Part shown: positions 5,439-37,782 of the stretch, piece after piece
How positions within the stretch are numbered: position 1 is the stretch's first letter
Layout of the letters: each line of letters begins with the position of its first letter
DNA from: Caldifarciminota bacterium
GTDB taxonomy: Bacteria > Hydrothermota > Hydrothermia > Hydrothermales > JAJRUZ01
Assembly (NCBI GenBank): GCA_024277525.1
Contig: JAJRUZ010000040.1
Span: 1-38,067, forward strand
Direction of reading: 5' to 3'
DNA: 38,067 bases
Notes under the pieces: generated by a model
Databases searched by the model: none
The model's input: only the letters and a program-made list of their open reading frames with translations
What the model was told of the DNA's origin: nothing
Program-made: the position numbers and the translations under genes

Positions 5439-6101
5439 TTACTCCTTCTTTTCTATAAGTCTTATTACATCTATAAGCGGTGCAAGTTCTTCATTTATGA
5501 GTAAGATTTTTTTGAAAATATTCCTATCCAAATCATAGGGAACGTCCAACAATTTAACATCTTTTTTTCTGTAAATACCTTTAATTTCTCCTGCTCTTAA
5601 AAAAACATTTTCCTTTCCCTTTTCAATAAATATGTAAGAATAGGGCTTTTCCTCTTCTTTTATTTTCAATAATTTACCCAGAGAAATTACAGGAATCATC
5701 TTGTTCCTGAAATTTGCCATTCCGATTGCATACTCCGGAAGCCCATGTGCTTCAACTATTTCCACACTTGTTACAACTTCATTTGCCTGGGCGGTTAAGA
5801 TTGAATAATATTCGCTCCCGACCTTAAATACCAAAAATTCCTCCTCTTTTTCTTCTTCCTCAAGTTCGGCAACGGCTTCGGGTAAGATTTCGGTGGTTGT
5901 CACCTCTTCTGGTTCAATAATTTCTTTTTCTTCTGTCTCAATTTTTTCCTCTTTTTTTAATATTTTTCCCTCCTTTTCTCTTTTTTTTCTTTTAACTTTT
6001 CTTTTTTTGACTTTCTTTTCTTTTCTTTCTTCCCTTTTTTCCTCTTTTTTTTCACCTTTAATCATTTCCAGATATTTCTGGTAACTCAGTTCTTCTTTCA
6101 T
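5439..6101 (-). CDS. CheW-like domain protein with a highly charged N-terminal arm
   Basis: 220 residues in two parts. Residues 13 to about 55 are almost all Lys, Arg and Glu, followed by an acidic linker to about 85. Residues about 88-220 form a CheW-like beta-barrel domain: 'EEFLVFKVGSEYYSI', 'EVVTS.EIVEAHGLPEYAIGMANFRNKMIPVISL', then 'YSYIFIE.GKENVFLRAGEIKGIYR'. CheW domains couple receptors to CheA-type kinases. No CheA, receptor or other chemotaxis gene is in the window, and the gene sits between hslV and uppP. Its ATG overlaps the hslV stop by 4 nt. The charged arm may bind membrane, nucleic acid or another scaffold; that is guesswork. The role may differ from classical chemotaxis. Confidence 0.8.
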   Translation of the reverse strand: MKEELSYQKYLEMIKGEKKEEKREERKEKKVKKRKVKRKKREKEGKILKKEEKIETEEKEIIEPEEVTTTEILPEAVAELEEEEKEEEFLVFKVGSEYYSILTAQANEVVTSVEIVEAHGLPEYAIGMANFRNKMIPVISLGKLLKIKEEEKPYSYIFIEKGKENVFLRAGEIKGIYRKKDVKLLDVPYDLDRNIFKKILLINEELAPLIDVIRLIEKKE

Positions 6102-6625
6102 AGTTCCAGAATTAAAAATTGGTTATTTGTGTAAATGCAAATTTCGGAAGCAATTTTGAGGGACTCTTCAACGATTTTCCTCGCATCAAGATTTGTATGT
6201 CTTAAAAGTGCAAGTGCTGCGGATCTCGCATAAGGAGCACCTGAGCCGATTGCAACAATGCCGAATTCCGGTTCAACAACCTCTCCATTCCCGGAAATTA
6301 TAAGAGCTTTTTCTTTATTTAAGACCGCAAGAAGTGCCTCAAGCCTTCTCAAAAACTTATCTGTTCTCCATTTTCTTGCAAGTTCAACCGATGCCCTCAT
6401 AATGTCTCCTTTATATTCTTTTAAATTTTTCTCAAGATTTTCAAACAGAGTATAGGCATCCGCGACAGCGCCTGCAAACCCCACAAGAACCTTTCCGTTA
6501 TAAATCTTCATAACCTTTCTTGCCTTATGTTTTAAAATGGTTTCACCGAGAGTTACCTGCCCATCTGCTCCTATAACCGCATTTCCATCCTTCACAATAC
6601 CGAGAACAGTTGTAGAAGAAAACAT
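6098..6625 (-). CDS. hslV: ATP-dependent protease proteolytic subunit HslV
   Basis: 175 residues from the ATG at 6625. I chose this start because it places the catalytic Thr-Thr pair ('MFSSTTVLGIVKDG') at the N terminus; the longer open frame upstream is AT-rich filler. HslV is the threonine protease core of the HslUV machine. Family features: 'AVIGADGQVTLG.T..K..ARKV', 'VLVGFAGAVADA.TLFE', 'WR.D..LR.LEA', 'VEPE.GI.AIGSGAPYA..AA.AL'. Four residues would have to be removed to expose Thr5, against one in E. coli. It leads the hslV-cheW-uppP-folC unit. The AAA+ partner hslU, normally adjacent, is absent from the window. The -10 box lies 6 nt before the ATG. Confidence 0.93.
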   Translation of the reverse strand: MFSSTTVLGIVKDGNAVIGADGQVTLGETILKHKARKVMKIYNGKVLVGFAGAVADAYTLFENLEKNLKEYKGDIMRASVELARKWRTDKFLRRLEALLAVLNKEKALIISGNGEVVEPEFGIVAIGSGAPYARSAALALLRHTNLDARKIVEESLKIASEICIYTNNQFLILEL

Positions 6626-6631
6626 CTTAAA

Positions 6632-6637
6632 ATTATA
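6632..6637 (-). promoter_or_regulatory. -10 box of the hslV operon (probably leaderless)
   Basis: On the minus strand TATAAT is followed by 6 nt and then the hslV ATG, so transcription would begin at or next to the start codon. There is no Shine-Dalgarno site. A T-rich -35 region (TTTATT-like) lies 17 nt further up and is weak. Confidence 0.55.
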
Positions 6638-6654
6638 ATACAGAAATAGATGAA

Positions 6655-6700
6655 AATAAAAAAATTTAAAAAAACAGACATTCAATATGTCTATTGAATA
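6655..6700 (-). terminator. Terminator-like hairpin after rsmB
   Basis: An 8 bp perfect inverted repeat ATTCAATA / TATTGAAT with a 4-nt loop (6680-6699). On the minus strand it is followed by a run of eight T, five bases on. It lies between the rsmB end and the hslV promoter, so it could end the lipB-rsmB transcript. The stem is AT-only, so an operator for hslV is an alternative. Confidence 0.4.
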
Positions 6701-6805
6701 AAAAGTAAGTATTTTTTCATTCTTGGAAAACTTCTTTGTTGAAGGATTCGAAAATAAAAACCGATCCAAAAAGATCTCAAAGAACTACATAATATTTTAT
6801 TAAAT

Positions 6806-10998: not shown

Positions 10999-11433
10999 CT
11001 ATAAATCTATCTCCTTCAAGCTTTTTACCCATGGAATTTTATAAGGTTTTTCTATTTTAAAACCGTATGTAAAGATTTTTTTACCAAAGGCATAAGCATA
11101 TGCAATTTCGGTAAATGTTCCTTCTGATAGTCCGCATGCAAGTACTATATCACAGCAAAGAATCAATAAAACATTTCTCATTTTACCTATTCCCGTAGGA
11201 ATCACTATATCACAATAAGGGTTTGCCTCCTTCTTCATACTGCCCGGAATAATACCGAGGGTAATCCCGCCTTTTTCCTTTGCTCCTTTCATTGCTTCCT
11301 CCATCACACCTCCCAAACCGCCCGTGGCAACCACATAGCCCTTTTCTGCAAAAAATTTTCCTGCTTCATAAGCCCTTTTTTTCTCTTCTTCATCGGGCTT
11401 TGAAGGTCCTATGATTCCTGCAATTTTTCTCAT
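10999..11433 (-). CDS. TIGR00725 / SLOG-type (LOG-like) nucleotide-binding protein
   Basis: 144 residues. 'GIIGPSKPDEEEK..AYEAGKFFAEKGYVVATGGLGGVMEEAMKGAKEKGG' followed by 'GIIPG' and 'GLSEGTFTEIAYAYAFGKKI' is the Rossmann-like pattern of the TIGR00725 family. This family is a relative of LOG cytokinin-activating phosphoribohydrolases and of the DprA SLOG domain. The LOG motif PGGxGTxxE is replaced by 'GLSEGTFTE', so LOG activity should not be assumed. It is the last gene of the minus-strand glycan operon and overlaps the DUF4015 gene by 4 nt. The biochemical function is unknown; SLOG proteins generally bind nucleotides or nucleotide-derived ligands. Confidence 0.82.
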   Translation of the reverse strand: MRKIAGIIGPSKPDEEEKKRAYEAGKFFAEKGYVVATGGLGGVMEEAMKGAKEKGGITLGIIPGSMKKEANPYCDIVIPTGIGKMRNVLLILCCDIVLACGLSEGTFTEIAYAYAFGKKIFTYGFKIEKPYKIPWVKSLKEIDL

Positions 11434-17035: not shown

Positions 17036-17770
17036 ATGGGAGAAAAATTTGACATTTATTTAAAATTACCGGAATTCATTTATACATGTGATAAAAATTT
17101 TGAAATTTTTGAAAAGAAAGATATAGGGATTAAAAATGGAAAAATTGTATTTATCGGTGATTATAAAGAAGGTAAAAAATTTATAGGTGAAAACACACGT
17201 GTTATAAATTTAAAGAATAAAATTGTTCTGCCGGGCTTTGTTGACCCTCATACTCATCCCGTATATGCAGGTGACAGGGCTATTGAATTTGAAGAAAGAA
17301 TAGGTGGTAAAGAATATTTAAAATTTCTTAAAGAAGAAAAGGGAATTTTATATACTGTTAAAAAAACAAGAGAAAAGAGTAAAAGAGAATTGAAAAAAAT
17401 AGTTAAAAACAGATTAAAAAAGTTTATTGAATTCGGGACATTAACACTTGAAGCAAAATCAGGTTATGGTTTGGATATAGACGAAGAATTAAAACACCTT
17501 GAAATTCTTTATGAACTTAAAAAGGAATTACCCCTTGATATTAAAATAACAGCCCTCTTTGCACATGCTGTCCCTCCTGGTAAGTCTAAAAAAGAATATA
17601 TTGACAAAATAATAAAAACAGGACTTAAAAAGGCGAAAAAATTTGCGGATTTCTGTGATGTATTTGTTGAAAAAGGTGTTTATACAAAAGAAGAAGGTAA
17701 AAAAATTCTGGAAAATGCAAAGAAAACCGGTCTTTTACCCAGAATCCATGCTGACGAAATTACAAATTAA
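17036..17770 (+). CDS. hutI: Imidazolonepropionase, N-terminal part (split by an in-frame TAA)
   Basis: 244 residues that match the first 60% of HutI, which opens the imidazolone ring to N-formimino-glutamate in histidine breakdown. The amidohydrolase metal site begins with 'PGFVDPHTHPVYAGDRA' (two His ligands). 'LEAKSGYGLD' and 'LFAHAVPPG' follow, then 'RIHADEITN' with a third His. At that point the frame meets TAA (17768-17770). The next codons, in the same frame, continue the family sequence 'GGAELA' without any gap. Most homologues have one residue there, often Leu, so a TTA to TAA change would explain the break. Without the second half the enzyme lacks the last metal ligand. Decay, recoding or a sequence error are all possible. 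Confidence 0.9.
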   Translation: MGEKFDIYLKLPEFIYTCDKNFEIFEKKDIGIKNGKIVFIGDYKEGKKFIGENTRVINLKNKIVLPGFVDPHTHPVYAGDRAIEFEERIGGKEYLKFLKEEKGILYTVKKTREKSKRELKKIVKNRLKKFIEFGTLTLEAKSGYGLDIDEELKHLEILYELKKELPLDIKITALFAHAVPPGKSKKEYIDKIIKTGLKKAKKFADFCDVFVEKGVYTKEEGKKILENAKKTGLLPRIHADEITN

Positions 17771-17782
17771 GGAGGTGCGGAA

Positions 17783-18256
17783 TTGGCATGTGAAATAGAA
17801 GCATTATCTGCTGACCATCTTGAATATACAAAGATCCACACATTGAGAAAAATGAAAAATAAAAATGTTTCTGCAATTTTATTACCCGCAACTTCTTTTT
17901 TTATGAAATTACCGTTTCCGAAAGGAAGAAAAATGCTTGATCTGGGACTGAATGTTTGCCTTGCAACCGATCATAACCCCGGAACCTCGTATATATATTC
18001 ACAACTATTCGTAGCAGGTCTTGCAATATTTTTAATGGAATTTAAAATTGAAGAAGCATTAAAGGCGATTACAATAAATTCCGCAAAATCCCTTTTAATG
18101 GACAAAGATAAGGGTTCAATTGAAATAGGAAAAGATGCGGATATAATTGTTTTTGATGTAAAGCGTGTTTCTTATCTGTTTTACGATTTTTTTAATGTTC
18201 ATAAGCCATGTCTCGTGATAAAAAAAGGAAAGGAGGTGATTAATGAAATTGATTGA
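17783..18256 (+). CDS. hutI: Imidazolonepropionase, C-terminal part
   Basis: 157 residues from a TTG at 17783; homology really begins at 17771, directly after the TAA. It contains 'ALSADHLEYT', 'ILLPATSFFMKLPF' and 'CLATDHNPGTSY' with the metal-ligand Asp, then the 'A..ITINSAKSL...DKGSIEIGKDADIIVFD' end of the amidohydrolase fold. The conserved Gly-Gly codons right after the TAA read GGAGGT (17771-17776) and lie 6 nt before this TTG, so they form a good Shine-Dalgarno site. Ribosomes ending at the TAA could restart here, making a two-chain enzyme. Whole length across the stop is 406 codons, the normal size. It overlaps the next gene by 14 nt. Confidence 0.85.
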   Translation: MACEIEALSADHLEYTKIHTLRKMKNKNVSAILLPATSFFMKLPFPKGRKMLDLGLNVCLATDHNPGTSYIYSQLFVAGLAIFLMEFKIEEALKAITINSAKSLLMDKDKGSIEIGKDADIIVFDVKRVSYLFYDFFNVHKPCLVIKKGKEVINEID

Positions 18257-20051
18257 ATGTGTTCCGAATTTTTCCGAAGGAAGAAATAAAAAAATAATTG
18301 ATGAAATAGTTGAAGCAATAAAATCTGTTGATGGCATTAAAGTTCTTGATGTTGATCCGGGATACGACACAAACAGGACAGTTGTGACTTTTATTGGACC
18401 ACCAGAAGCTGTTAAAGAAGCAGCTTTCCGCGGAATAAAAAAGGCATCCGAACTTATTGATATGACAAAGCATAAGGGAGCACACCCAAGAATGGGAGCA
18501 ACGGATGTATGTCCATTTATTCCATTAAAAGATGTCACCTTTGAAGAATGCAATGAGATAGCTCTGGAGGTTGCAAAAAGGGTAGGGGAGGAATTAAGAA
18601 TTCCTGTTTATTTATATGAAAAATCCGCAACAAAACCCGAAAGAAAAAATCTGGCTTATATAAGAGAAGGAGAATATGAGGGACTTAAGGAAAAGATAAA
18701 GAAACCGGAATGGAAACCGGACTTCGGACCTCAGGAATTTAATCCTAAATCAGGGGCGACGGTAATAGGTGTTAGAGAATTTTTAATTGCATATAACATA
18801 AATTTAAATACTAAGGAAAAAAGATATGCAACCGATATAGCATTTGAATTGAGAGAAAAAGGAAGAACGAAAAGAAAAGGTAATATTTATCCTTTTTATT
18901 TCAAAGGTGAGATTGTAAGATATAAGGAAAATGAGTATCCATGCGGAGAGTGTGAAGAAGTTTTTGAAAATCTGGATGAATTATATAATCATGTAAAGAA
19001 AAACCACGGGTATGACCTGTTTGAACTTTTAAAAATGCACGGCATTGAAAAGGAAAATATTATAGGGAGACCCGTTAAAAAGAAAGGAAAATTTAAAAAT
19101 GTAAAGGCAATCGGATGGTATATTGACGAATATAAAAGAGCACAGATAAGTATAAATTTAACAGACTATAAGATAACAAATATGCATCATGTTTATGAAG
19201 AAGCAAAAAAACTTGCAGAGGAAAGGGGACTCTCTGTTACAGGGAGTGAAATTGTTGGTCTTGTCCCTTTTAAAGCAATTTTTGAGTCAGGAATATATTA
19301 TTTAAAAAGACAAAAAACATCCACAGGAGTACCCGTGAGGGATGTCCTTGAAACCGCAATCCAGTCTCTCGGATTAAGGGATGTTGCAGAATTTGATATT
19401 GAGGAAAAAGTATTGGGTTTACCTGATGTATTTACAAGTAAATATCCTAAATTCAAAATATGGGATTTTGTAGATGAACTTTCAAGAGGTTCTCCTGTTC
19501 CAGGAGGTGGTTCATCTTCCGCACTTTCAGGTGCCCTTGCTTCCGCACTTTCAAGTATGGTCCTTAATATCACAATTTCAAAACTGAAAGACGATAAAAA
19601 ATACGAAAAATTGAGCAAATTTGCTGAAAAATTTCAGGAGTTAAAAGATTTCTTTTTGATAAATATAGATAAGGATAGTGAAAGTTTTGAAAATTATATG
19701 AAAAAGTTAAGGGAAGGTGAAAATGAGGAGGAAATTAAAAGTGCCTTGATTGAGACGATAAATGTTCCCTTTTCCGTGATGAAGAAATCATTTGAAGGAA
19801 TAAAGATGATTGATGAAATTTTAAGTGATATAGATGAAAATGTAATATCCGATTTGGGTTGCTCTGTTCTTTCTTTTCTTTCTGCATTTAAAGGTGCGTA
19901 TATGAATGTTTTAATAAACTTGAAAAATATGAAAAATCAGGATAAGTTAAAATATGAAAAAGAGTGTAAAAAAATGTTAAAAGATTTTGAAAATTTGGTT
20001 AAAAAACTTGAAAATATAATATTTGAAAAACTTTTGGAAGGAGGTACATGA
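18243..20051 (+). CDS. ftcd: Formiminotransferase-cyclodeaminase with an inserted C2H2 zinc finger
   Basis: 602 residues. Residues 1 to about 180 are the formiminotransferase N domain ('CVPNFSEGRN', 'HKGAHPRMGATDVCPFIPL' with the catalytic-type His81). Residues 285-360 continue the C domain ('VKAIGWYIDEYKRAQISINLTD', 'VGLVPFKAIFESG'). Residues about 405-602 are the cyclodeaminase ('FVDELSRGSPVPGGGSSSALSGALASALSSMV'). It transfers formimino from formiminoglutamate to tetrahydrofolate, then deaminates it to methenyl-THF: the step after HutI. Between 'LREKGRTKR' and 'KNVKAIGWY' about 65-75 extra residues appear, holding Cys234, Cys237, His250 and His255 in exact C2H2 spacing. Start is set by AAAGGAGGTGAT at 18231-18239. 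Homologues have a short loop at that place as far as I recall. Confidence 0.92.
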   Translation: MKLIECVPNFSEGRNKKIIDEIVEAIKSVDGIKVLDVDPGYDTNRTVVTFIGPPEAVKEAAFRGIKKASELIDMTKHKGAHPRMGATDVCPFIPLKDVTFEECNEIALEVAKRVGEELRIPVYLYEKSATKPERKNLAYIREGEYEGLKEKIKKPEWKPDFGPQEFNPKSGATVIGVREFLIAYNINLNTKEKRYATDIAFELREKGRTKRKGNIYPFYFKGEIVRYKENEYPCGECEEVFENLDELYNHVKKNHGYDLFELLKMHGIEKENIIGRPVKKKGKFKNVKAIGWYIDEYKRAQISINLTDYKITNMHHVYEEAKKLAEERGLSVTGSEIVGLVPFKAIFESGIYYLKRQKTSTGVPVRDVLETAIQSLGLRDVAEFDIEEKVLGLPDVFTSKYPKFKIWDFVDELSRGSPVPGGGSSSALSGALASALSSMVLNITISKLKDDKKYEKLSKFAEKFQELKDFFLINIDKDSESFENYMKKLREGENEEEIKSALIETINVPFSVMKKSFEGIKMIDEILSDIDENVISDLGCSVLSFLSAFKGAYMNVLINLKNMKNQDKLKYEKECKKMLKDFENLVKKLENIIFEKLLEGGT

Positions 20052-20052
20052 T

Positions 20053-21603
20053 ATGCTATTAAAAGAACGGTTTCAAAACCTGGCTTTTAAGTATTTTAAC
20101 CAAAGGGAATTTGAAAAAGCATTAAAGCTTGTTGACAGACTCCTGGAGGAGAATAAGGAAGATTTCAACCTTTTACTCTTTAAAGGAGACATTCTCGCCC
20201 AGATGGAGGATATCGAAAATGCTCAAAATTACTACATTTCTGCCATTGAGAAAGCAAATAAAGAAAAAGATAATTTCAAAAGGGTTCTTGCTCTGATGAA
20301 ACTAAAAAGAATTCAAGGAGAAACAAATGAGTTAAATGCCAGAATTTTTATTTCTTCTTATAATCTCGGACTTTTAAAACTATGCGAAGATGCCCTTGAG
20401 AAACTTTTAAGGGAGGATGTGCTTGAAGAATCAGCAAAATTTTTGGAAAGGGTTATAAATGATGTAAAAAAAGAGGAAGAAGGAGTTTGTAATTTCTTAA
20501 AGGGAATTCTTTATTTAAAAATCGGAAAAGAGGAAGGTAAGGATTTTTTAAGTAAAGCAAAGGAAAAAATTGATGAGGAAGAAAAATTAAAAAATTATAA
20601 AGAGTTTATTGAAGGGATTTCGGGTGCAAGGGAAGGCGGAATAGATTTAAAGGAACTGGAGGATATTTTGCAGATTGAAGGACTGGCTGAAAGGAAACTT
20701 GAACCGGCAGGAACACTTGAATTGGCTGATTTATTGAGAAGCATAGGTTCCCAAGAGGAAGCAATTTTGGAATATTTCAGTGCAATATACGGATATATTT
20801 CTCAGGAAAACAATATTGAAAAGGCAAAAGAAATCCTTGAAAAGGTAAAGGAAATGACACCCGACGATGAGAGAATTCCAAAAGTTCAGGAATTCTTGGA
20901 AAAGATTGAAAAGGAGGAAGTAAAGGAGGAAAAAGAAGAGAAAATAGAAATAGGAATTGATTTAATGAAAAAGATTTTTTCCGAGTTTTTACTTCCGGAA
21001 GAAAATACCGACAACTGGCTCAGCTTTTTAAATTTGATGTCAGAGTGGAATATGTTTGAAGAAATAATCGATTATTACAGGGAGATTGAAGAAAAAGAAG
21101 CAAATGTGGATTTGTTTGCACCTCATTATTTATATTCCCTTTATATGATCGGTGAATATGAAGAGGTTGTGGAAAAGGCAGATAAGTTTATTGAACAAAC
21201 CGAAAGTGAGGAAGTTTTGAAATTTTTAAAGTATTTTAAAGCAGTTTCCCTTTATAAACTGGAAAATAAAGAAAAAGCACTTGAAATTCTGGGTTCTATT
21301 TATGAACAGGACCCCGGTTTTCTTGATGTGAAGGATTACATGGAAGAAAAAAGACCCGAAGAAGTCACCCTAAGCGAAAAGATTTTGGAAGAGGAAAAGG
21401 AGGAAGAAGTTGTTGAAATTGAAGAAGTGATTGAAGAAAAAGCTGAACCCGTGGAGGTAATTGAGGAAGTTGAACCGGTCGAGGAGCCGGAACCGGAAGT
21501 TGTTGAAATTGAGGAAAAAGAAGCTCCTGTCCAAGCACAAGAAAAAGCACCTGCTCCTGTGATGGAGAAAAAACCTTTAAAAGAACACTTTATAATAATA
21601 TAA
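20053..21603 (+). CDS. TPR-repeat protein 1 with acidic C-terminal tail
   Basis: 516 residues from the ATG at 20053, which has GGAAGGAGGT 8 nt upstream (the in-frame ATG at 20023 lies inside the previous gene). Helical tetratricopeptide-like repeats fill residues 1 to about 420 ('KYFNQREFEKALKLVDRLL', 'FNLLLFKGDILAQMEDIENA', 'YLYSLYMIGEYEEVVEKADK'). An E/V/P-rich low-complexity tail of about 75 residues follows ('EEVVEIEEVIEEKAEPVEVI'). No signal peptide or membrane segment is seen, so it is probably cytoplasmic. It opens a TPR-ATPase-TPR-ATPase run. It likely acts as a scaffold for the ExeA-like ATPase next to it; that is inference from gene order. Confidence 0.8.
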   Translation: MLLKERFQNLAFKYFNQREFEKALKLVDRLLEENKEDFNLLLFKGDILAQMEDIENAQNYYISAIEKANKEKDNFKRVLALMKLKRIQGETNELNARIFISSYNLGLLKLCEDALEKLLREDVLEESAKFLERVINDVKKEEEGVCNFLKGILYLKIGKEEGKDFLSKAKEKIDEEEKLKNYKEFIEGISGAREGGIDLKELEDILQIEGLAERKLEPAGTLELADLLRSIGSQEEAILEYFSAIYGYISQENNIEKAKEILEKVKEMTPDDERIPKVQEFLEKIEKEEVKEEKEEKIEIGIDLMKKIFSEFLLPEENTDNWLSFLNLMSEWNMFEEIIDYYREIEEKEANVDLFAPHYLYSLYMIGEYEEVVEKADKFIEQTESEEVLKFLKYFKAVSLYKLENKEKALEILGSIYEQDPGFLDVKDYMEEKRPEEVTLSEKILEEEKEEEVVEIEEVIEEKAEPVEVIEEVEPVEEPEPEVVEIEEKEAPVQAQEKAPAPVMEKKPLKEHFIII

Positions 21604-21616
21604 AGGAGGTAAAAGA

Positions 21617-22426
21617 ATGGATGTTTTTGAATTTTTCGGATTTAAAAAAGACCCTTTTACAATGGTTCCTGATCCCGAACTTTTTTATCCATCAAAAGTT
21701 CATAAAGAAGCACTGGAAAAAATAAAATTCTGCATAACCAGAAACAGAGGGGCATGTGTTTTAACAGGAGAAGTGGGAACAGGTAAGAGTATGATATTGA
21801 GAAAAATTCTTATTGATTTTTATAAAGATGAGGTTTATCTTCCCCTCTTTGTATTGTTTGCTCACCAGGAAGTTGATGTAAAATGGTTTTTGAAAAAAAT
21901 ATCAAAATTTTTCGGTTTAAAAGATACGGATGATATTTCACAATTAAAAGAGGAATTCATCTCTTCATTGCTTGATAAATTTGAAGAAGGAAAGAAAATT
22001 GTGTTTCTCTTGGATGAATCACATAAGATAAGGTCAAAGGAACTTAAAAGCTTTTTCAGAGACCTTCTTTCAATTGAAGATTTAAGTGAGAAGCCGGTAT
22101 CGCTTGTTTTTGTGGGGTTAAGTGATTTAATCACAAATTTCAGGGAAGATCCGAAATTTTCCCAAAGAATTCCTTTATGGATATCACTTGAAAAATTAAA
22201 AGAAGATGAAATAATTGATTATATAAATTACCGAATAGAAAATGCGGGAGGTGATTCGGGAATCATTGAGGAGTCTGCAAAAGAAAAAATAAAAGAGGTC
22301 TCAAAGGGAATACCCAGGGTTATTAATGCTATATGCGATGCAGCTCTTCTTGAAAGTTATATGCAGGGTAAAAAAAAGGTAGAATTAAGCGAAGTTGAAA
22401 AGGTGATTTCGGGAATGGGATTATGA
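21617..22426 (+). CDS. ExeA/GspA-like AAA+ ATPase 1
   Basis: 269 residues covering only the ATPase domain. The start motif 'FFGFKKDPFTMVPDPELFYPS..H.EAL' is the hallmark of ExeA-like and related AAA_22-type proteins. Walker A is 'GEVGTGKS' (51-58); Walker B is 'VFLLDESHK' (about 129-137). 'GLSDL...........QRIPL' and 'KGIPRVINAICDAALL' mark the sensor regions. Classical ExeA also has a membrane span and a peptidoglycan-binding domain; both are missing. In type II secretion ExeA helps secretin assembly, but no secretin or pilus gene is here. A TAAAGGAGGT ribosome site precedes it. Its stop overlaps the next TPR gene by 4 nt, so they are translated together. Confidence 0.88.
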   Translation: MDVFEFFGFKKDPFTMVPDPELFYPSKVHKEALEKIKFCITRNRGACVLTGEVGTGKSMILRKILIDFYKDEVYLPLFVLFAHQEVDVKWFLKKISKFFGLKDTDDISQLKEEFISSLLDKFEEGKKIVFLLDESHKIRSKELKSFFRDLLSIEDLSEKPVSLVFVGLSDLITNFREDPKFSQRIPLWISLEKLKEDEIIDYINYRIENAGGDSGIIEESAKEKIKEVSKGIPRVINAICDAALLESYMQGKKKVELSEVEKVISGMGL

Positions 22427-23766
22427 ACATAGCAGAGCTTAAGAGAAAAGCAATAGAAAGTGAAAGCAAAGGAGATTACAAAAAGGCACTTTCTATTTAT
22501 CAGACAATATTGAAAGAAAAGCCGGATGATCCGGATATACTTTTAAGGGTCGGGCAGATTTTACTCAGATTTAAACAGGATAAGAAAGCAGGTGAATTTC
22601 TCTTAAAGGCGGTTCAAATTTTTGAAGAAAGAGAAATAGCAAACAACAGGGTCGTTGCAATATATAAAAAATTATTGCAGATCTTTCCTGAAAAGAAAGA
22701 ACTTTATAAAAAACTTGCAGAGGCTTTTTATTCAGTGGGAATGGTCGGAGAGGCGGGGAAAGCCCTTGAGACTTATATAGAATATCTTTTTAAAAATGGA
22801 GAATATGACAAAGGATTTGAAAATTATGAACTTTTACTTACATGGCAACCCGAAAATTTTGCTTTAAAAGAAAGGGTGGCTGATATCTATCTTGCTTTCA
22901 AAAAAAAGGACAGGGCAATAGAGTTGCTCGGTGAACTTTTATCTTATTATTCAAAGAGAAATAAAGTAAAAGAAGAAGTAATAAAGCAAAAACTTTTTTC
23001 TCTGGGTGTAAAAGAGGAGGAACTGGGGGAGCTTATAAGCTCTGACCATGAAGAAGAGGAAAAAGATAGTGTATTTGTAACTCTTGATGATTTAATTGGT
23101 GGAAAGAAAACTTTAAAAAGACCTTCCAGAGCACCCCCAAAGAAAGAAGAAAAGGCTCCGGTAGCTGAAGAAGAACCTTCGTTTGAGCCTTCGGAGGTAC
23201 CCGAGATGACAGAGGCGGTACCGGTTGAGGAAGAAGAGAAGATTGAAGAAGAGGTAGAGGTTAAAGAAGAAGAAGAAAAAAAAGCCGAAGAAGTTTCGGA
23301 AGAAGAGATCAGTTCTCCGCAAAAGATGAAAGGAGTTGCGGAGACTCTCTTACTTCTCGGAGATTACACCGGAGCCCTTGATTCTTACTATACTGCTTAT
23401 CAACTTTATTTAAAAGAGAATTCTTTAATTGAAGCATATAAAATTTTAAAAGAAATTGCGGATAAATGGCCCGAAGAGATAAGAGCAAGAAAAGAAATGG
23501 TCAGAATTTCTCATATGTTAAAAAACAAAGAAATGCTTGTGGATAGTATATTGTCACTTGCGGAATGTTTATACAAAAGGGGCGCCAAGGAAGAAGCAGT
23601 AAAATGGTTTTTAAAGGTTTTACAGATTGAGCCGGATAATAAGAAGGCAAAAGAATATGTATCTATAATAGCTCCTGAAAAACTGAAGGAGTTGAAAAAA
23701 CCGAAAGTAGAGACTCCGAGGAAGGAGCCGGAGGTCAAAAAGGTTAAAAAGGAAGTTAAAAAATAA
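22423..23766 (+). CDS. TPR-repeat protein 2, N-terminal part (split by an in-frame TAA)
   Basis: 447 residues. An N-terminal TPR block comes first (1 to about 195, 'GDYKKALSIYQTILKEKPDDPDI', 'YDKGFENYELLLTWQPENFALKERV'). An acidic and Pro-rich linker follows (about 205-300), then a second TPR block (about 305-425, 'GDYTGALDSYYTAYQLYLKENS', 'GAKEEAVKWFLKVLQIEPDNKKAKEY'). It then enters a Lys/Glu repeat tract ('EVKKVKKEVKK') and meets TAA at 23764-23766. The same frame stays open after the stop, with the same repeat ('VKKEVKK'), for another 198 codons. So this is one 647-codon gene with a single nonsense codon inside a low-complexity linker. Confidence 0.8.
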   Translation: MNIAELKRKAIESESKGDYKKALSIYQTILKEKPDDPDILLRVGQILLRFKQDKKAGEFLLKAVQIFEEREIANNRVVAIYKKLLQIFPEKKELYKKLAEAFYSVGMVGEAGKALETYIEYLFKNGEYDKGFENYELLLTWQPENFALKERVADIYLAFKKKDRAIELLGELLSYYSKRNKVKEEVIKQKLFSLGVKEEELGELISSDHEEEEKDSVFVTLDDLIGGKKTLKRPSRAPPKKEEKAPVAEEEPSFEPSEVPEMTEAVPVEEEEKIEEEVEVKEEEEKKAEEVSEEEISSPQKMKGVAETLLLLGDYTGALDSYYTAYQLYLKENSLIEAYKILKEIADKWPEEIRARKEMVRISHMLKNKEMLVDSILSLAECLYKRGAKEEAVKWFLKVLQIEPDNKKAKEYVSIIAPEKLKELKKPKVETPRKEPEVKKVKKEVKK

Positions 23767-24363
23767 GTAAAGAAAGAGGTTAAAAAAGAACCCTTAAAGG
23801 AGGTAACAAAGAAACCTACAGTAAAAGAGAAAAAAGAAAAGGAATTTGTAGATTTTGCAAAAATGTTAAAAGAGGAAATAGAGAAAGAAGAGGAAGAAGA
23901 AAAAGAAACGGGAATCTTGGAAGAAGTAAGGGAAACACTGCATCATTTTTCAAAAGAGGTTGATTATAAAGGAAAACTTGAACTCGGGATAGCAATGAGA
24001 GAGATGGGTCTTTATGAAGAAGCCATAATGAATCTGAAAGAAGCAGCAAAAGGTCCTGATACGCGGATAGAAGCACTTGAACTCCTGGGTCAAATCTTTA
24101 TGGGATTAAATAAAAATGAACTTGCAATTGAATACTTTGAACAGGCATTAAAAGAGAAAATTGAGGATGAAAGAAGGAGAATTTCAATTGAATACCATCT
24201 TGCAGAATGTTATGAAAAAATAGGAGATCCCGTTAATGCACTTGCATATTACAAGAGAGTATTTGAAAAAGACCCCGGTATCAAAGGTTTAAAAGAAAAA
24301 ATTGAAGAATTAGAAGGAAAAGAAAGGGGAGTTCTTGATGAGGATAGAATTTCCTTTCTATAA
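23767..24363 (+). CDS. TPR-repeat protein 2, C-terminal part
   Basis: The in-frame continuation after the TAA at 23764. The first ATG is at 23863 (166 residues from there), with no clear ribosome site close by. About 60 linker residues rich in Lys and Glu lead into three TPR units ('GLYEEAIMNLKEAAKG', 'LNKNELAIEYFEQALKEK', 'GDPVNALAYYKRVFEKDPGIKGLKEKI'). The ExeA-like ATPase 2 follows after 7 nt. If the stop is real, the C-terminal TPR part next to ATPase 2 would be made only by readthrough or weak internal initiation. Confidence 0.7.
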   Translation, partial: VKKEVKKEPLKEVTKKPTVKEKKEKEFVDFAKMLKEEIEKEEEEEKETGILEEVRETLHHFSKEVDYKGKLELGIAMREMGLYEEAIMNLKEAAKGPDTRIEALELLGQIFMGLNKNELAIEYFEQALKEKIEDERRRISIEYHLAECYEKIGDPVNALAYYKRVFEKDPGIKGLKEKIEELEGKERGVLDEDRISFL

Positions 24364-24370
24364 ATGAGAA

Positions 24371-25192
24371 ATGCAGTCAATTTCGTATCTTCAGTTTTAC
24401 GGATTTAAGAAAGAACCGTTTTCTGCTGCACCGGATGAAAGTTTTTGGTTTTCTTCTCCTCAACATACAGAAGCATTAACAAAAGTGCTGCATGCAATAA
24501 AAAATTACAGGGGACTGATACTTGTTACAGGCGATATTGGACTCGGAAAAACAACACTTGCAAGAAAACTTTTGAGAGAATTGCTTATGGATAAGATTTT
24601 TGAGCCTGCTTTAATTGTGATTGTTCATTCCTCGGTCGGAACAATATGGTTTTTAAAAAAAATTGCTTATTTTTTAAGATTAAAAGAAGAAGAGGAGGAT
24701 CCGGTTTCAATAGTTTCAAAAATTTCAAGAAAATTATTGGAAATGCATAAGGAAAATAAAATTCCGGTATTCTTGATTGATGAGGCAAATATGCTTAAAA
24801 ATAAAGAGATAATGGAAGAGATAAGGGGACTTTTGAATATAGAAATACCCGGAAAAAGACTGATAAATTTTGTGCTTTTCGGTTTGCCTGAAGTGGAAGA
24901 TAATTTAAAAATTGATATGCCACTTTATGAAAGGGTTGCTTTAAAAATAAAAATAAAACCTTTGGACCTTGAGTCGTCAAAAAGTTATATTAAACATCGT
25001 TTAAAAATTGCGGGAGGAAATGATAATGTTTTTTCAGAAGAGACTTATCCTTTGATTTTCAAGCATTCAAGAGGAAAGCCGAGATTAATAAACACAATCT
25101 GTGATAATGCATTACTTGAAGGGTTTTTAAAAAAGAAAAAAATAATTGACGCAGGAATAATAAGAAAGGTAGTTGAAGAATTGAGTTTATGA
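24371..25192 (+). CDS. ExeA/GspA-like AAA+ ATPase 2
   Basis: 273 residues, a paralogue of the ATPase at 21617. It shares the N-terminal 'FYGFKKEPFSAAPDESFWFSSPQHTEAL' box, Walker A 'GDIGLGKTT' (54-62), Walker B 'VFLIDEANML' (about 133-142), 'FGLPEVE....' and 'HSRGKPRLINTICDNALL'. It also lacks the membrane and peptidoglycan-binding parts of classical ExeA. By eye the two ATPases are clearly related but far from identical, so the cassette duplication is old. The start has only a weak upstream GAGAA; coupling to the TPR gene is likely. Its stop overlaps the PHP gene start by 4 nt. Confidence 0.87.
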   Translation: MQSISYLQFYGFKKEPFSAAPDESFWFSSPQHTEALTKVLHAIKNYRGLILVTGDIGLGKTTLARKLLRELLMDKIFEPALIVIVHSSVGTIWFLKKIAYFLRLKEEEEDPVSIVSKISRKLLEMHKENKIPVFLIDEANMLKNKEIMEEIRGLLNIEIPGKRLINFVLFGLPEVEDNLKIDMPLYERVALKIKIKPLDLESSKSYIKHRLKIAGGNDNVFSEETYPLIFKHSRGKPRLINTICDNALLEGFLKKKKIIDAGIIRKVVEELSL

Positions 25193-26019
25193 AAAAATTA
25201 AAGGTTGATTTGCATGCTCACACAAGTTTTTCGGATGGTGAACTTTCTCCTTATGAATTGATAAAAAAGGCGGAAAATGAAGGGATTGATGTTCTCGGTG
25301 TTGTTGACCATGATACAATGGAAGCGGCGTATCATATCCCTGAATCAAAAATTGAAATTGTAATCGGAACAGAGCTTTCGCTGAGAGATGGAAGAAGAGA
25401 TATTCATTTACTTGTCTATTTTCCTGATAAAAATTCCGAATTGGAAGAAACATTAAGGAAAATAAGAGAAGTAAGATTTGAAAGGATAAAAAAAATAATA
25501 AAAAAATTAAATGAAATGAATATAAAAATTACATTGGAAGATGTGATAAGGGAAGGAAATACTCTTTCTTTCGGAAGACCTCATATAGCAAGGGTGCTTT
25601 TGAAAAAGGGATATGTGGCATCAATTGATGAGGCTTTTGACAGATATATAGGAAACGGAAAACCCGCATATATACCGAAATTTAAATTGACCCCGAAACA
25701 GGGTATTGAACTTGCACTTAAATCCAACGGAATTCCTGTCATAGCACACCCCGGAATAGAAAACATTGACTATGATTATCTTGATTACTTAAAATCACTC
25801 GGTATGAAAGGTGTTGAAGTCTTTTATCCTGACCATGATGAAGAAAAAGAGAAATACTATATGGAATATGCTTTAAGGAATAAAATGTTTATAACAGGTG
25901 GTTCAGATTATCACGGTGACAATCACGACGGAAAGGAAGTTTTGGCAAAAAAAACATTGCCTTATAAGTATTTTATAGAACTTAAGAAATATAAATATGA
26001 AGTGCTTGGTAGCAAATAG
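25189..26019 (+). CDS. PHP-domain metal-dependent phosphoesterase (TrpH/RNase AM-like)
   Basis: 276 residues. 'DLHAHTSFSDGELSPYELIKKAENEGIDVLGVVDHDTM' is the first metal-binding block of the polymerase-and-histidinol-phosphatase fold. 'GTELSL', 'HLLVYF', 'FGRPHIARVL', 'PVIAHPG' and 'TGGSDYHG' supply the remaining His, Asp and Glu ligands. The whole follows the TrpH/YciV family, whose characterised members are 3'-phosphoadenylate phosphatases or 5'-3' exoribonucleases for rRNA tails. Which activity applies here is not known. The gene overlaps the ATPase 2 stop by 4 nt, and its last 23 nt contain the start of the biotin carboxylase gene. Confidence 0.9.
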   Translation: MKKLKVDLHAHTSFSDGELSPYELIKKAENEGIDVLGVVDHDTMEAAYHIPESKIEIVIGTELSLRDGRRDIHLLVYFPDKNSELEETLRKIREVRFERIKKIIKKLNEMNIKITLEDVIREGNTLSFGRPHIARVLLKKGYVASIDEAFDRYIGNGKPAYIPKFKLTPKQGIELALKSNGIPVIAHPGIENIDYDYLDYLKSLGMKGVEVFYPDHDEEKEKYYMEYALRNKMFITGGSDYHGDNHDGKEVLAKKTLPYKYFIELKKYKYEVLGSK

Positions 26020-35622: not shown

Positions 35623-37782
35623 ATGAAAAAGATAATTTTAATTATAGTTGTAATTTTTGCTTTTATTTTTACGTTGTTTATTGCTTCCTTTATTGCTGCT
35701 AAATCTTTCCTTACGCCCGAAAGGATAAAAAATTTTGCGGAAGGGATAATAGAAAAGAGCCTGAATGCAGAAGCCGAAATCCAGGAAGTAAAACCTGAAA
35801 TCGGTTTTTTTAAAGCAGGAATAAAGGCAGAAGACATAGAAATTACAAAAAATAAGAAAAAATTAGTCTCTGTTAAAGAAATTGAGTTTAAACTGAAAAT
35901 ATTGCCCCTTATTTTCAAAAGAAGCTTAGATATTCAAAAGATTTATATTAAAGAACCTGAAATAGAGTATCATATTAAAAAGAAAGGTAAAAAAAGGAAG
36001 AGAGAAAAAGCAAAAGAGCTTAAACCCGAAGCAGGATTGCTTTTTACCCTCAAAAATTTTACACTTGAAGATGCAAGGATTAAGATTTATAAAGACAAGA
36101 AAAAAATATACGATATAAAAGATTTTGACATAACCTTTTCCTCATATTCGATAACGAAGAATAAAATTAATTTCAAGGGTAGGGGAGGAGTTTTAATAAA
36201 AGAGCCGAAATTTATTAATCAGAAAATAAATTTTTCTTTTGATTTTGACTTGGACATTGCAAGAGATTTTATTGAACTTAAAGACTATTCCCTTGCTGTC
36301 AGAGATATAGAAATTGAAGGGAACGGGGAGTTTGAAAAAATTATAAAAGGGGAGCCAGAATATTCAATTAAAATAATTTCGAAAAATATTGAACTCTCAA
36401 GTCTTAGAGAATTTTTAAAAAATAAGAAAACGAATTTAAAAGGAAAGGTTGACATTGACTTAAAAATAAAAGGAAATATAAAAGAGACCTTGCCGAAAAT
36501 TTATGGAAAAATAAAATCCGATGATATAACCTTGATAACCGAAGGAAAAAGAATTAATTTTAATAAATTGAGAATTGATTTTAAGGGTGTATCCGGAGAA
36601 TTAAAAACAAAAATGGTTTACGGATTGCAAAAGGGTAATATAAGCAGTCGGTTCTATATGGATAAATTGAGTTTTAAAGGGAAACTTGATATAGAAGGGA
36701 ATTTGAAAGAGTTTACAGGTAAAGATGCGGTATACAGTTTAAATTTGAATTTCAACGGAAATATAAAAGGTGATATAAATGCAAAAGGAGATTTAGAGTC
36801 AGGCAAAAATAGATTAACATTTAATATAAGTGGAAAGAAAGAGAGGAATATTTTTTACCTTAACGGTTCGGTAAATTCGGATTATTTCAATGTAAATGAT
36901 TTTTTACCGCCTGAGAAAAAGAATGGACAGAAAAAAGGAAAAAAAGTAGAACTTTTGCTTCCGAAGGGTGTAAATGTGCACATAACAGGAAATATTAAAA
37001 GATTGATTTTAAAAAAAGACAAAATGGAAAGGGTTAGGTTCAGGCTTAAAGTTGATAAAAAGGGAATAAGGTTAGAGGATTTAAAGGGTAATGTTTATAA
37101 GGGTCGGATTGAGGGAGAAGTTTATATTTTTAAAGGCAGTATAAAAGTAAAGTCAAAAATAAAAGGTAAAAATCTTGAATTTTCTGAAATTTTGAAAATA
37201 CATAAATTTTTGCCCGGTGAAATAAAGGGTAAGTTAGATATAAGAACGGATGCAAGTTTTGATTTAGAAAATATTTTTGAAACCCTTAATGCAAAAAATT
37301 CTGTTTTTGTATTTAAGGGAGAGTGGAGAGCAAATCCTGTTTTAACAAAAATTGCAGATTTGTTAAAAATAAATGATTTAAAGAGATTGAAATTTCAGAA
37401 AATTAATGCAAGGCTTGAAATTAATAGAGGATGGATGAATCTAAACAATTTCAAAATTCAGGGAAGGAATTTTTTAATTGTTACTACCGGTAGAGTGAGC
37501 TTGAAGGGAAATTTGGATATAAAGTTAAAAATCAATTTTAAGGGTAATCTTGGAGAAAAATTAAGGAGATTTTCCTCACTTTCAAAGTATTTCCAGAATA
37601 AAAAAGGTGATTTTGAACTTGTTTTTGACATAGACGGAACATATAAAAATCCGAAGATAAAACTTGATATAACCGATTTTCAGAGAAAAATCCAAAAAGA
37701 AATAAAGAAAAAAGTAAAGAAGAAAATAAAAGAGGAGATAAAGAAGGGGATAGAGGAGTTATTTAAAAGGTTCGGGTTTTAG
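35623..37782 (+). CDS. AsmA-like inner membrane-anchored protein
   Basis: 719 residues. A single N-terminal membrane span (about 3-27) is followed by the AsmA-type start 'FLTPERIKNFAEGIIEKSLNAEAEIQEVKPEIGFFKAGIKAEDIEI'. A long series of beta strands fills the rest, with repeated 'FKG.L.I.GN.KE' units (for example 'FKGRGGVLIKEPKF', 'LKGKVDIDLKIKGNIKETLP', 'FKGKLDIEGNLKEFTGKDA'). The end, 'LVFDIDGTYKNPKIKLDI' and a KK-rich tail, is typical of the family C terminus. Members (AsmA, TamB, YhdP) bridge the periplasm and move phospholipids to the outer membrane. This supports a diderm cell. It is a single-gene unit. Confidence 0.85.
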   Translation: MKKIILIIVVIFAFIFTLFIASFIAAKSFLTPERIKNFAEGIIEKSLNAEAEIQEVKPEIGFFKAGIKAEDIEITKNKKKLVSVKEIEFKLKILPLIFKRSLDIQKIYIKEPEIEYHIKKKGKKRKREKAKELKPEAGLLFTLKNFTLEDARIKIYKDKKKIYDIKDFDITFSSYSITKNKINFKGRGGVLIKEPKFINQKINFSFDFDLDIARDFIELKDYSLAVRDIEIEGNGEFEKIIKGEPEYSIKIISKNIELSSLREFLKNKKTNLKGKVDIDLKIKGNIKETLPKIYGKIKSDDITLITEGKRINFNKLRIDFKGVSGELKTKMVYGLQKGNISSRFYMDKLSFKGKLDIEGNLKEFTGKDAVYSLNLNFNGNIKGDINAKGDLESGKNRLTFNISGKKERNIFYLNGSVNSDYFNVNDFLPPEKKNGQKKGKKVELLLPKGVNVHITGNIKRLILKKDKMERVRFRLKVDKKGIRLEDLKGNVYKGRIEGEVYIFKGSIKVKSKIKGKNLEFSEILKIHKFLPGEIKGKLDIRTDASFDLENIFETLNAKNSVFVFKGEWRANPVLTKIADLLKINDLKRLKFQKINARLEINRGWMNLNNFKIQGRNFLIVTTGRVSLKGNLDIKLKINFKGNLGEKLRRFSSLSKYFQNKKGDFELVFDIDGTYKNPKIKLDITDFQRKIQKEIKKKVKKKIKEEIKKGIEELFKRFGF

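What the first reader, a model, noticed from the sequence alone, without database searches (positions are those of the whole stretch)
20053..25192. Duplicated TPR + ExeA-like ATPase cassette: possible undescribed machine
Two TPR proteins with long acidic/basic linkers alternate with two ExeA-type AAA+ ATPases that lack the membrane and peptidoglycan-binding parts of true ExeA. Genes overlap or nearly touch, which points to one complex. No secretin, pilin or other secretion gene is nearby. The ATPases may form a heteromeric ring with TPR scaffolds, perhaps for envelope or pilus positioning.
Basis: partly seen in the sequence, partly recalled or inferred. Interest (0 to 1): 0.68.

Follow-up and report, generated by a model that had tools for sequence, protein, structure and literature searches.

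The report
Paired TPR–ATPase cell-polarity module
A four-gene cassette of two scaffold proteins, each followed by its own ATPase, is conserved across a whole candidate bacterial phylum; one scaffold resembles the Myxococcus protein SgmX, which lets a Ras-like switch protein turn on surface pili at one cell pole, so the cassette is probably an uncharacterised cell-polarity module rather than a secretion machine.

Summary
In detail: TPR1, ATPase1, TPR2, ATPase2 run in tight order, and the ATPases have no membrane or peptidoglycan-binding parts. One correction: TPR2 is a single gene in relatives (625-663 aa) but is cut by an in-frame TAA here. The order hutI-(ftcD)-TPR1-ATPa-TPR2-ATPb-PHP recurs in many families of the phylum (WOR-3/Hydrothermota lineage). 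ATPa and ATPb are ancient paralogues, so a TPR-ATPase pair was duplicated early. It is not a pilus or secretion locus.

Elsewhere in the phylum the best named match of TPR2 is SgmX, the effector of the Ras-like GTPase MglA, collinear at both ends (up to 165 bits); the window copy is a divergent orthologue. The cassette follows the MglA/MglB switch, not pili. Lineages without any pilus/secretion ATPase kept MglA and one ATPa-type pair but have no SgmX-like TPR2-ATPb. A third TPR-ATPase pair sits, in several families, in an operon with pilT, a second mglA and chemosensory genes.

Best reading: a cytoplasmic MglA-effector (polarity) module, with TPR2-ATPb directed at type IV pili where these exist. 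SgmX membership fails NCBI's cut-off, MglA binding is untested, and the ATPase mechanism is inferred. New variant of a known kind.

The parts
20053..21603 (+). TPR1, 516 aa: alpha-helical TPR protein with an acidic, predicted disordered C-terminal tail (425-516)
   Evidence: A3 orthologues found only in this order within its class; positional counterparts elsewhere in the phylum
21617..22426 (+). ATPase1 (ATPa position), 269 aa, ExeA-like AAA_22 ATPase with Walker A GEVGTGKS and Walker B DE conserved
22423..24363 (+). TPR2, SgmX-like: N-terminal TPRs, charged linker, middle TPRs, second linker, C-terminal TPRs; one gene in relatives, interrupted here
23764..23766 (+). in-frame TAA that separates the C-terminal TPR domain from the rest of TPR2
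23863..24363 (+). C-terminal TPR domain of TPR2 (listed as its own 166-aa ORF); aligns to SgmX model positions 878-1010, the region of the MglA-GTP-binding TPRs of M. xanthus SgmX
24371..25192 (+). ATPase2 (ATPb position), 273 aa, ExeA-like AAA_22 ATPase; predicted fold closest to MuB/TnsC/Orc1-Cdc6
17036..18256 (+). hutI (imidazolonepropionase), conserved upstream neighbour; also broken here by an in-frame TAA at 17768-17770
18243..20051 (+). ftcD (formiminotransferase-cyclodeaminase), conserved upstream neighbour
25189..26019 (+). PHP-family phosphoesterase gene, conserved downstream neighbour (4-base overlap with ATPase2)

Best explanation
The cassette is a cytoplasmic effector module of the MglA/MglB (Ras-like GTPase and roadblock) switch, made of two tandem TPR-scaffold plus AAA+ ATPase pairs that arose by an early duplication. 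TPR2 is an SgmX-like scaffold. Its C-terminal TPRs would read MglA-GTP, its N-terminal TPRs would act on the type IV pilus machine, and its partner ATPb would load, remodel or release the scaffold complex. TPR1-ATPa would serve an MglA output that does not need pili. Shown here: the order, the duplication, the SgmX-like layout of TPR2, the co-occurrence with MglA, and the absence of the SgmX-like pair in lineages without T4P/T2SS ATPases. Inferred: MglA binding, physical TPR-ATPase pairing, and what ATP hydrolysis does.
For: (1) SgmX match: in other families the best NCBIfam hit of TPR2 is NF052243 SgmX (164.6 bits in G130, 104 in G073; the next TPR family about 70), collinear at both ends. 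Across 147 genomes the hits at E 1e-12 or better lie mostly on cassette TPR2 genes, often as two halves (about 3-200 and 865-1030), and 0 of 14 control genomes ring. Window TPR2 scores 340 bits on a TPR2 profile built without its own order, against at most 61 for TPR proteins that do not belong to these cassettes, apart from one 125-aa ORF in G136. (2) The genome has mglB-mglA beside pilB-pilB-pilT. (3) Phyletic pattern: cassette with any MglA 62 of 63, without the cassette 34 of 84; close MglA paralogue 57 of 63 against 6 of 84; PilT shows no association. (4) Families f18/f19: no T2SSE-family ATPase above cut-off in 9 genomes, yet MglA in all 9 and a cassette ATPase in 8, the three examined being of the ATPa clade, with no SgmX-profile hit; SgmX-profile hits occur in 49 of 54 cassette genomes with PilT and 1 of 9 without, that one being 53% complete. 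(5) A third TPR4-ATP3 pair lies in an operon with pilT, mglA, CheR, CheD, CheB, CheW and an MCP in f28-f31, in whole or in part as the contigs allow. (6) In M. xanthus sgmX is followed by a 'putative Sec system ATPase' gene (PMC3983030), the same order as TPR2-ATPb.
Against: The SgmX curated cut-off (1800 bits) is far from met anywhere, and in the window's own family the generic TPR model MamA scores higher. No interaction or localisation data. The phyletic counts ignore relatedness: much of the signal may be a few clades; within the class there is one contrast only (f1+f2 against the rest). MglA and pili are present in several cassette-less families. The family of MXAN_5765 was not checked, and its inactivation had no effect on M. 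xanthus S-motility (PMC7668184), so the ATPase may be dispensable or act elsewhere. The usual neighbours are histidine-degradation genes. Because f18/f19 keep a pair without pili, a pilus-only function is excluded for ATPa.
Confidence: 0.58

Rival explanations
1. The ATPases are MshM/GspA-type assembly factors for a type IV pilus or type II secretion system, and the TPR proteins are their MshN/GspB-like partners, encoded away from the main locus.
For: Nearest ATPases in the same class outside this order lie in MSHA-type loci as mshM, next to the mshL-like secretin and mshN-like gene. MshM is compared with ExeA and MshN is a TPR protein (PMC4624765).
Against: MshM forms its own clade apart from the cassette ATPases. 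Families f18/f19 have the cassette but no T2SSE ATPase at all. The TPR proteins have no transmembrane-like segment. Genomes with T4P but without MglA lack the cassette.
Confidence: 0.15
2. The cassette belongs functionally to histidine/one-carbon metabolism (hutH-hutU-hutI-ftcD), as a scaffold or regulator of the pathway.
For: hutI, often with ftcD upstream and a PHP gene downstream, flanks the cassette in most families.
Against: In G076, G126 and G127 the TPR-ATPa-TPR2 genes stand away from hut genes, and in f30 ATPb is beside dapF-guaB-hslVU. The third pair is in a chemosensory operon. No metabolic domain in any of the four proteins.
Confidence: 0.1
3. The ATPases are TniB/TnsC/MuB-like DNA-binding AAA+ proteins taken over for a DNA or chromosome-positioning role, with TPR proteins as adaptors.
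For: PDB sequence hits are TnsC; the predicted fold is closest to the MuB filament, TnsC and Orc1/Cdc6.
Against: No transposase, TniQ or DNA-binding partner nearby. The shared fold is that of a whole AAA+ clade and does not show DNA binding. Association is with MglA and TPR genes.
Confidence: 0.08
4. They are the ATPases of the XrtA/PEP-CTERM (exosortase/exopolysaccharide) system.
For: TIGR03015 is the best NCBIfam match of both ATPases (154 and 186 bits). Distant single copies in G136 and G139 lie among polysaccharide-type genes.
Against: Both are well below the curated cut-off of 324.5. No exosortase gene among the window genes scanned. Those single copies are a separate clade.
Confidence: 0.04

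Closest known systems
SgmX (Myxococcus xanthus MXAN_5766) and Bdellovibrio Bd2492/Bd2490, effectors of MglA
   Same: Cytoplasmic TPR-only proteins with N- and C-terminal TPR arrays and a less conserved middle. TPR2 aligns collinearly to both ends. MglA/MglB present. In M. xanthus the next gene is a putative ATPase (PMC3983030).
   Different: TPR2 is about 580-790 aa against 1060. Scores are far under the NCBIfam cut-off. Here it lies in a duplicated cassette with two ATPases and a second TPR protein, beside hut genes, without tamAB. MglA binding is untested.
MshM/MshN of the MSHA pilus (Vibrio cholerae; MSHA-like loci in the same class)
   Same: ExeA-like ATPase next to a TPR or TPR-like protein.
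   Different: Within a full pilus locus with secretin and pilins; separate ATPase clade; the window cassette is not in such a locus and survives without pili in f18/f19.
ExeA/GspA
   Same: AAA_22 ATPase domain.
   Different: No transmembrane segment, no peptidoglycan-binding domain, no GspB or secretin neighbour.
XrtA/PEP-CTERM ATPase TIGR03015
   Same: Best NCBIfam match of the ATPases over their full length.
   Different: About half the curated score; no exosortase locus around.
TnsC/TniB/MuB
   Same: Nearest solved structures by sequence and fold; these form rings or filaments.
   Different: No transposition genes.

Membership tests
SgmX | Scores over the NCBIfam NF052243 cut-off (1800 bits) | tested here: not met
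   52 bits for the window, at most 165 in relatives; 0 of 147 genomes over the cut-off
SgmX | TPR arrays at both ends, collinear with SgmX, with no signal peptide or TM segment | tested here: met
   (positions about 3-200 and 865-1030); no TM-like segment
SgmX | MglA and a roadblock MglB-type partner in the genome | tested here: met
   mglB-mglA on contig C68, MglA 63-88% identical among cassette genomes
SgmX | C-terminal TPRs bind MglA-GTP; needed for T4P formation | not testable with these tools
SgmX | Followed by an ATPase gene of the same family as MXAN_5765 | tested here: inconclusive
   TPR2-ATPb order shown; MXAN_5765 known only as 'putative Sec system ATPase', its family not checked
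ExeA/GspA | Transmembrane segment and periplasmic peptidoglycan-binding domain | tested here: not met
ExeA/GspA | Partner GspB and a secretin locus | tested here: not met
   none among the window genes scanned; cassette present in genomes without any T2SSE ATPase
MshM (MSHA pilus) | Groups with MshM and lies in an msh locus | tested here: not met
   separate clades; locus context
XrtA/PEP-CTERM ATPase TIGR03015 | Score at or above 324.5 bits | tested here: not met
   153.7 and 185.9 bits
XrtA/PEP-CTERM ATPase TIGR03015 | Exosortase in the genome | not tested
   window genes scanned show none; genome not searched
TniB/TnsC/MuB | AAA+ fold of this clade | tested here: met
TniB/TnsC/MuB | Transposase and target-selector genes nearby | tested here: not met

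The most novel reading that the evidence does not exclude
A phylum-wide, previously undescribed class of Ras-GTPase effector complexes in which each TPR scaffold works with its own AAA+ ATPase as an ATP-driven loading or release step, with two or three parallel pairs per cell (one MglA-only, one pilus-directed, one chemosensory-directed); the paired ATPase would also be the overlooked partner of SgmX in Myxococcus.
Probability: 0.27. Interest if true: 0.8.

Novelty: new variant of a known kind. Interest (0 to 1): 0.6.

Why it matters
How a bacterial Ras-like switch places pili at one cell pole is known mainly from Myxococcus and Bdellovibrio. An SgmX-like protein conserved across an almost uncultured phylum, usually next to a dedicated AAA+ ATPase, would extend that pathway far beyond those groups and point to an ATP-driven step that the published models read here do not include. 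Nature has run a useful experiment: lineages without pili keep the MglA switch and one pair but have no SgmX-like pair, which separates pilus-directed from pilus-independent outputs. A cultured, piliated member of the phylum exists (strain sy37, PMC12285271), and M. xanthus offers a tractable test of the ATPase.

Tried and rejected
(a) A 921-aa 'fusion' of ATPase in G075 is an artefact of a masked stretch. (b) T4P/T2SS-only role: rejected for ATPa. (c) Recent duplication within the window: rejected, ATPa and ATPb are old clades; ATPa as one clade is not rejected (p-AU 0.36). (d) TPR1-specific search beyond its order: only generic TPR hits; f18 TPR-like proteins match both TPR1 and TPR2 weakly, so which one they descend from is open. 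(e) Named-genome scan with ATPase1 found one locus only, Candidatus Hydrothermus pacificus. (g) TPR1 model (mean pLDDT 67.6) was judged too weak for a fold search. (h) PDB search with TPR2 gives generic TPR structures such as OGT and designed repeats. (i) Paper searches found no description of the cassette in this phylum, within an open-access library only.
Full report
What is there. The window is contig 30 of a 2.34-Mb, 96% complete genome. Its order includes Candidatus Hydrothermus pacificus, identified through contig MTOH01000007.1; NCBI places this in Caldifarciminota, the WOR-3/Hydrothermota lineage. TPR1 (20053-21603), ATPase1 (21617-22426), TPR2 (22423-24363) and ATPase2 (24371-25192) follow hutI and ftcD and precede a PHP gene, accC, DUF212, ARPP-1 and cdaA. 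The junctions overlap or nearly touch. TPR2 carries one in-frame TAA at 23764-23766; relatives have one uninterrupted gene, so the extra 166-aa ORF is its C-terminal domain.

The ATPases. Both hit AAA_22 and, below the cut-off, TIGR03015. Walker A, Walker B, a conserved arginine and the G-x-PR-x-IN motif are invariant in the ATPase1 and ATPase2 alignments. There is no peptidoglycan-binding domain or transmembrane-like segment. The AlphaFold model of ATPase2 (mean pLDDT 82.6) is closest to MuB, TnsC and Orc1/Cdc6, and TnsC is the nearest solved sequence. These relatives form rings or filaments, which makes a multimer plausible but does not show a heteromeric ring.

Conservation. The four genes keep their order in three genomes of the same family at 57-75% identity. 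A profile of ATPase2 finds relatives in 72 of 147 genomes of the phylum. The order hutI-(ftcD)-TPR-ATPa-TPR2-ATPb-PHP recurs in families f12, f13, f17, f21 and f22 as far as the contigs reach, and the four genes without hutI or PHP in f31. Variants: f2 and f28 lack ATPb in the cluster; in f30 ATPb lies beside dapF-guaB-hslVU; in f14 only TPR2-ATPb was found; in f18/f19 two short TPR-like genes plus one ATPase lie between hutI and PHP. A tree of 76 ATPases puts ATPb (with window ATPase2) in one clade (support 94) and ATPa in a second. Window ATPase1 is a long-branched member of the larger group, and ATPa as one clade is not rejected. TPR1-type proteins of f16, f21 and f22 score 117-172 bits on a TPR2 profile, against at most 61 for TPR proteins outside these cassettes apart from one 125-aa ORF in G136. 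A two-gene TPR-ATPase unit was therefore probably duplicated before the phylum radiated (inference).

Identity of TPR2. In other families the best named match of TPR2 is NCBIfam SgmX: 164.6 bits in G130 and 104 in G073, against about 70 for the next TPR model. Window TPR2 itself gives only 52 bits, but it is orthologous to those proteins (340 bits on a profile made without its order). Across the phylum SgmX hits at E 1e-12 or better fall mostly on cassette TPR2 genes, often as two collinear halves, and in none of 14 control genomes. The SgmX C-terminal TPRs bind MglA-GTP in M. xanthus, and a truncation that removes them is a gain-of-function allele (PMC7668184). The stop in the window copy would remove the corresponding domain; whether that is real or an assembly error cannot be told here.

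Link to MglA. The genome carries mglB-mglA-cinA-pilB-pilB-pilT on contig 68. Over 147 genomes, 62 of 63 cassette genomes have an MglA match against 34 of 84 others; for the closer paralogue the counts are 57 of 63 and 6 of 84, and five of the six cassette genomes lacking it are at most 90% complete. PilT shows no association (54 of 63 against 66 of 84). These counts ignore relatedness and are descriptive only. A tree of 25 MglA proteins separates the paralogue found in the chemosensory operon from the one found next to mglB.

A natural experiment. Nine genomes of f18/f19 have no T2SSE-family ATPase above the Pfam cut-off, hence no recognisable T4P or T2SS motor, yet all have MglA and eight have a cassette ATPase. 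The three examined fall in the ATPa clade. None of the nine has an SgmX-profile hit. Lineages without pili thus keep MglA and the ATPa-type pair and have no SgmX-like pair. This separates two outputs: TPR2-ATPb goes with pili, TPR-ATPa with MglA.

Third pair. TPR4 (269 aa) and ATP3 overlap on contig 1 of the genome. In f28-f31 their orthologues lie in an operon with pilT, accC, a second mglA, a DUF4388-TPR gene, CheR, CheD, CheB, CheW and an MCP, in whole or in part as far as the contigs reach. This is independent genomic evidence that TPR-ExeA-like ATPase pairs serve MglA/pilus/chemosensory control.

Mechanism proposed. MglA-GTP, restricted in space by MglB, would recruit TPR2 through its C-terminal TPRs; the N-terminal TPRs would act on the pilus machine; ATPb would bind the scaffold and use ATP hydrolysis to load or release it. 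TPR1-ATPa would act likewise on a pilus-independent target. The first two steps are borrowed from M. xanthus SgmX (PMC7519303, PMC7668184), the rest is inference. Inactivation of MXAN_5765, the ATPase gene after sgmX, had no effect on S-motility, which warns that the ATPase may be accessory; its family was not checked here.

Known or new. The module fails the SgmX curated cut-off and the defining features of ExeA/GspA, MshM and TIGR03015, so it is not filed in any of them. It works most like SgmX. No description of the cassette was found in the open-access library. Rated a new variant of a known kind.

Noticed in passing
17036-17770 and 17783-18256: hutI is also broken by one in-frame TAA (17768-17770), at a residue that is Ser in the three same-family relatives. 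With TPR2 and a pilB gene (in-frame TGA, contig C68, L070 about 11348-11350, Gly in a relative) three of about 31 compared places in this genome carry a single stop; the two whose original residue is clear fit single G-to-T or C-to-A changes. Strain mutation, oxidative-type damage or consensus error not distinguished.
   Followed up: partly
G000:C1:7839-9420 (L030): A third TPR-ATPase pair (TPR4-ATP3) next to a HAD gene and acpS; elsewhere in the phylum it lies in a chemosensory/pilT/mglA operon.
   Followed up: yes
5439-6101: A CheW-domain gene (220 aa) directly beside a proteasome/HslV-type gene (6098-6769). In f30 ATPb lies beside hslV-hslU.
   Followed up: no
18243-20051, residues about 225-265 of FtcD: The formiminotransferase domain holds an insertion with a C2H2-like zinc-finger pattern (weak Zap1_zf1 hit); same-family relatives have the same protein length.
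   Followed up: no
L156 (G057:C2:208582-211541): Four tandem MglA genes and one MglB-like gene in a genome with no T4P or T2SS motor ATPase.
   Followed up: partly
L154, L156, L158-L163: The mglB-mglA pair lies next to 2-oxoacid:ferredoxin oxidoreductase-like genes in many families; reason unknown (identified by eye from sequence starts, not by Pfam).
   Followed up: no
L034, L035, L036, L037, L149: MSHA-type pilus loci in other orders of the class, with their own mshM.
   Followed up: partly
35623-37782: YhdP/AsmA-family protein gene about 10 kb downstream of the cassette; in M. xanthus the sgmX operon ends in tamB-tamA. No link shown.
   Followed up: no
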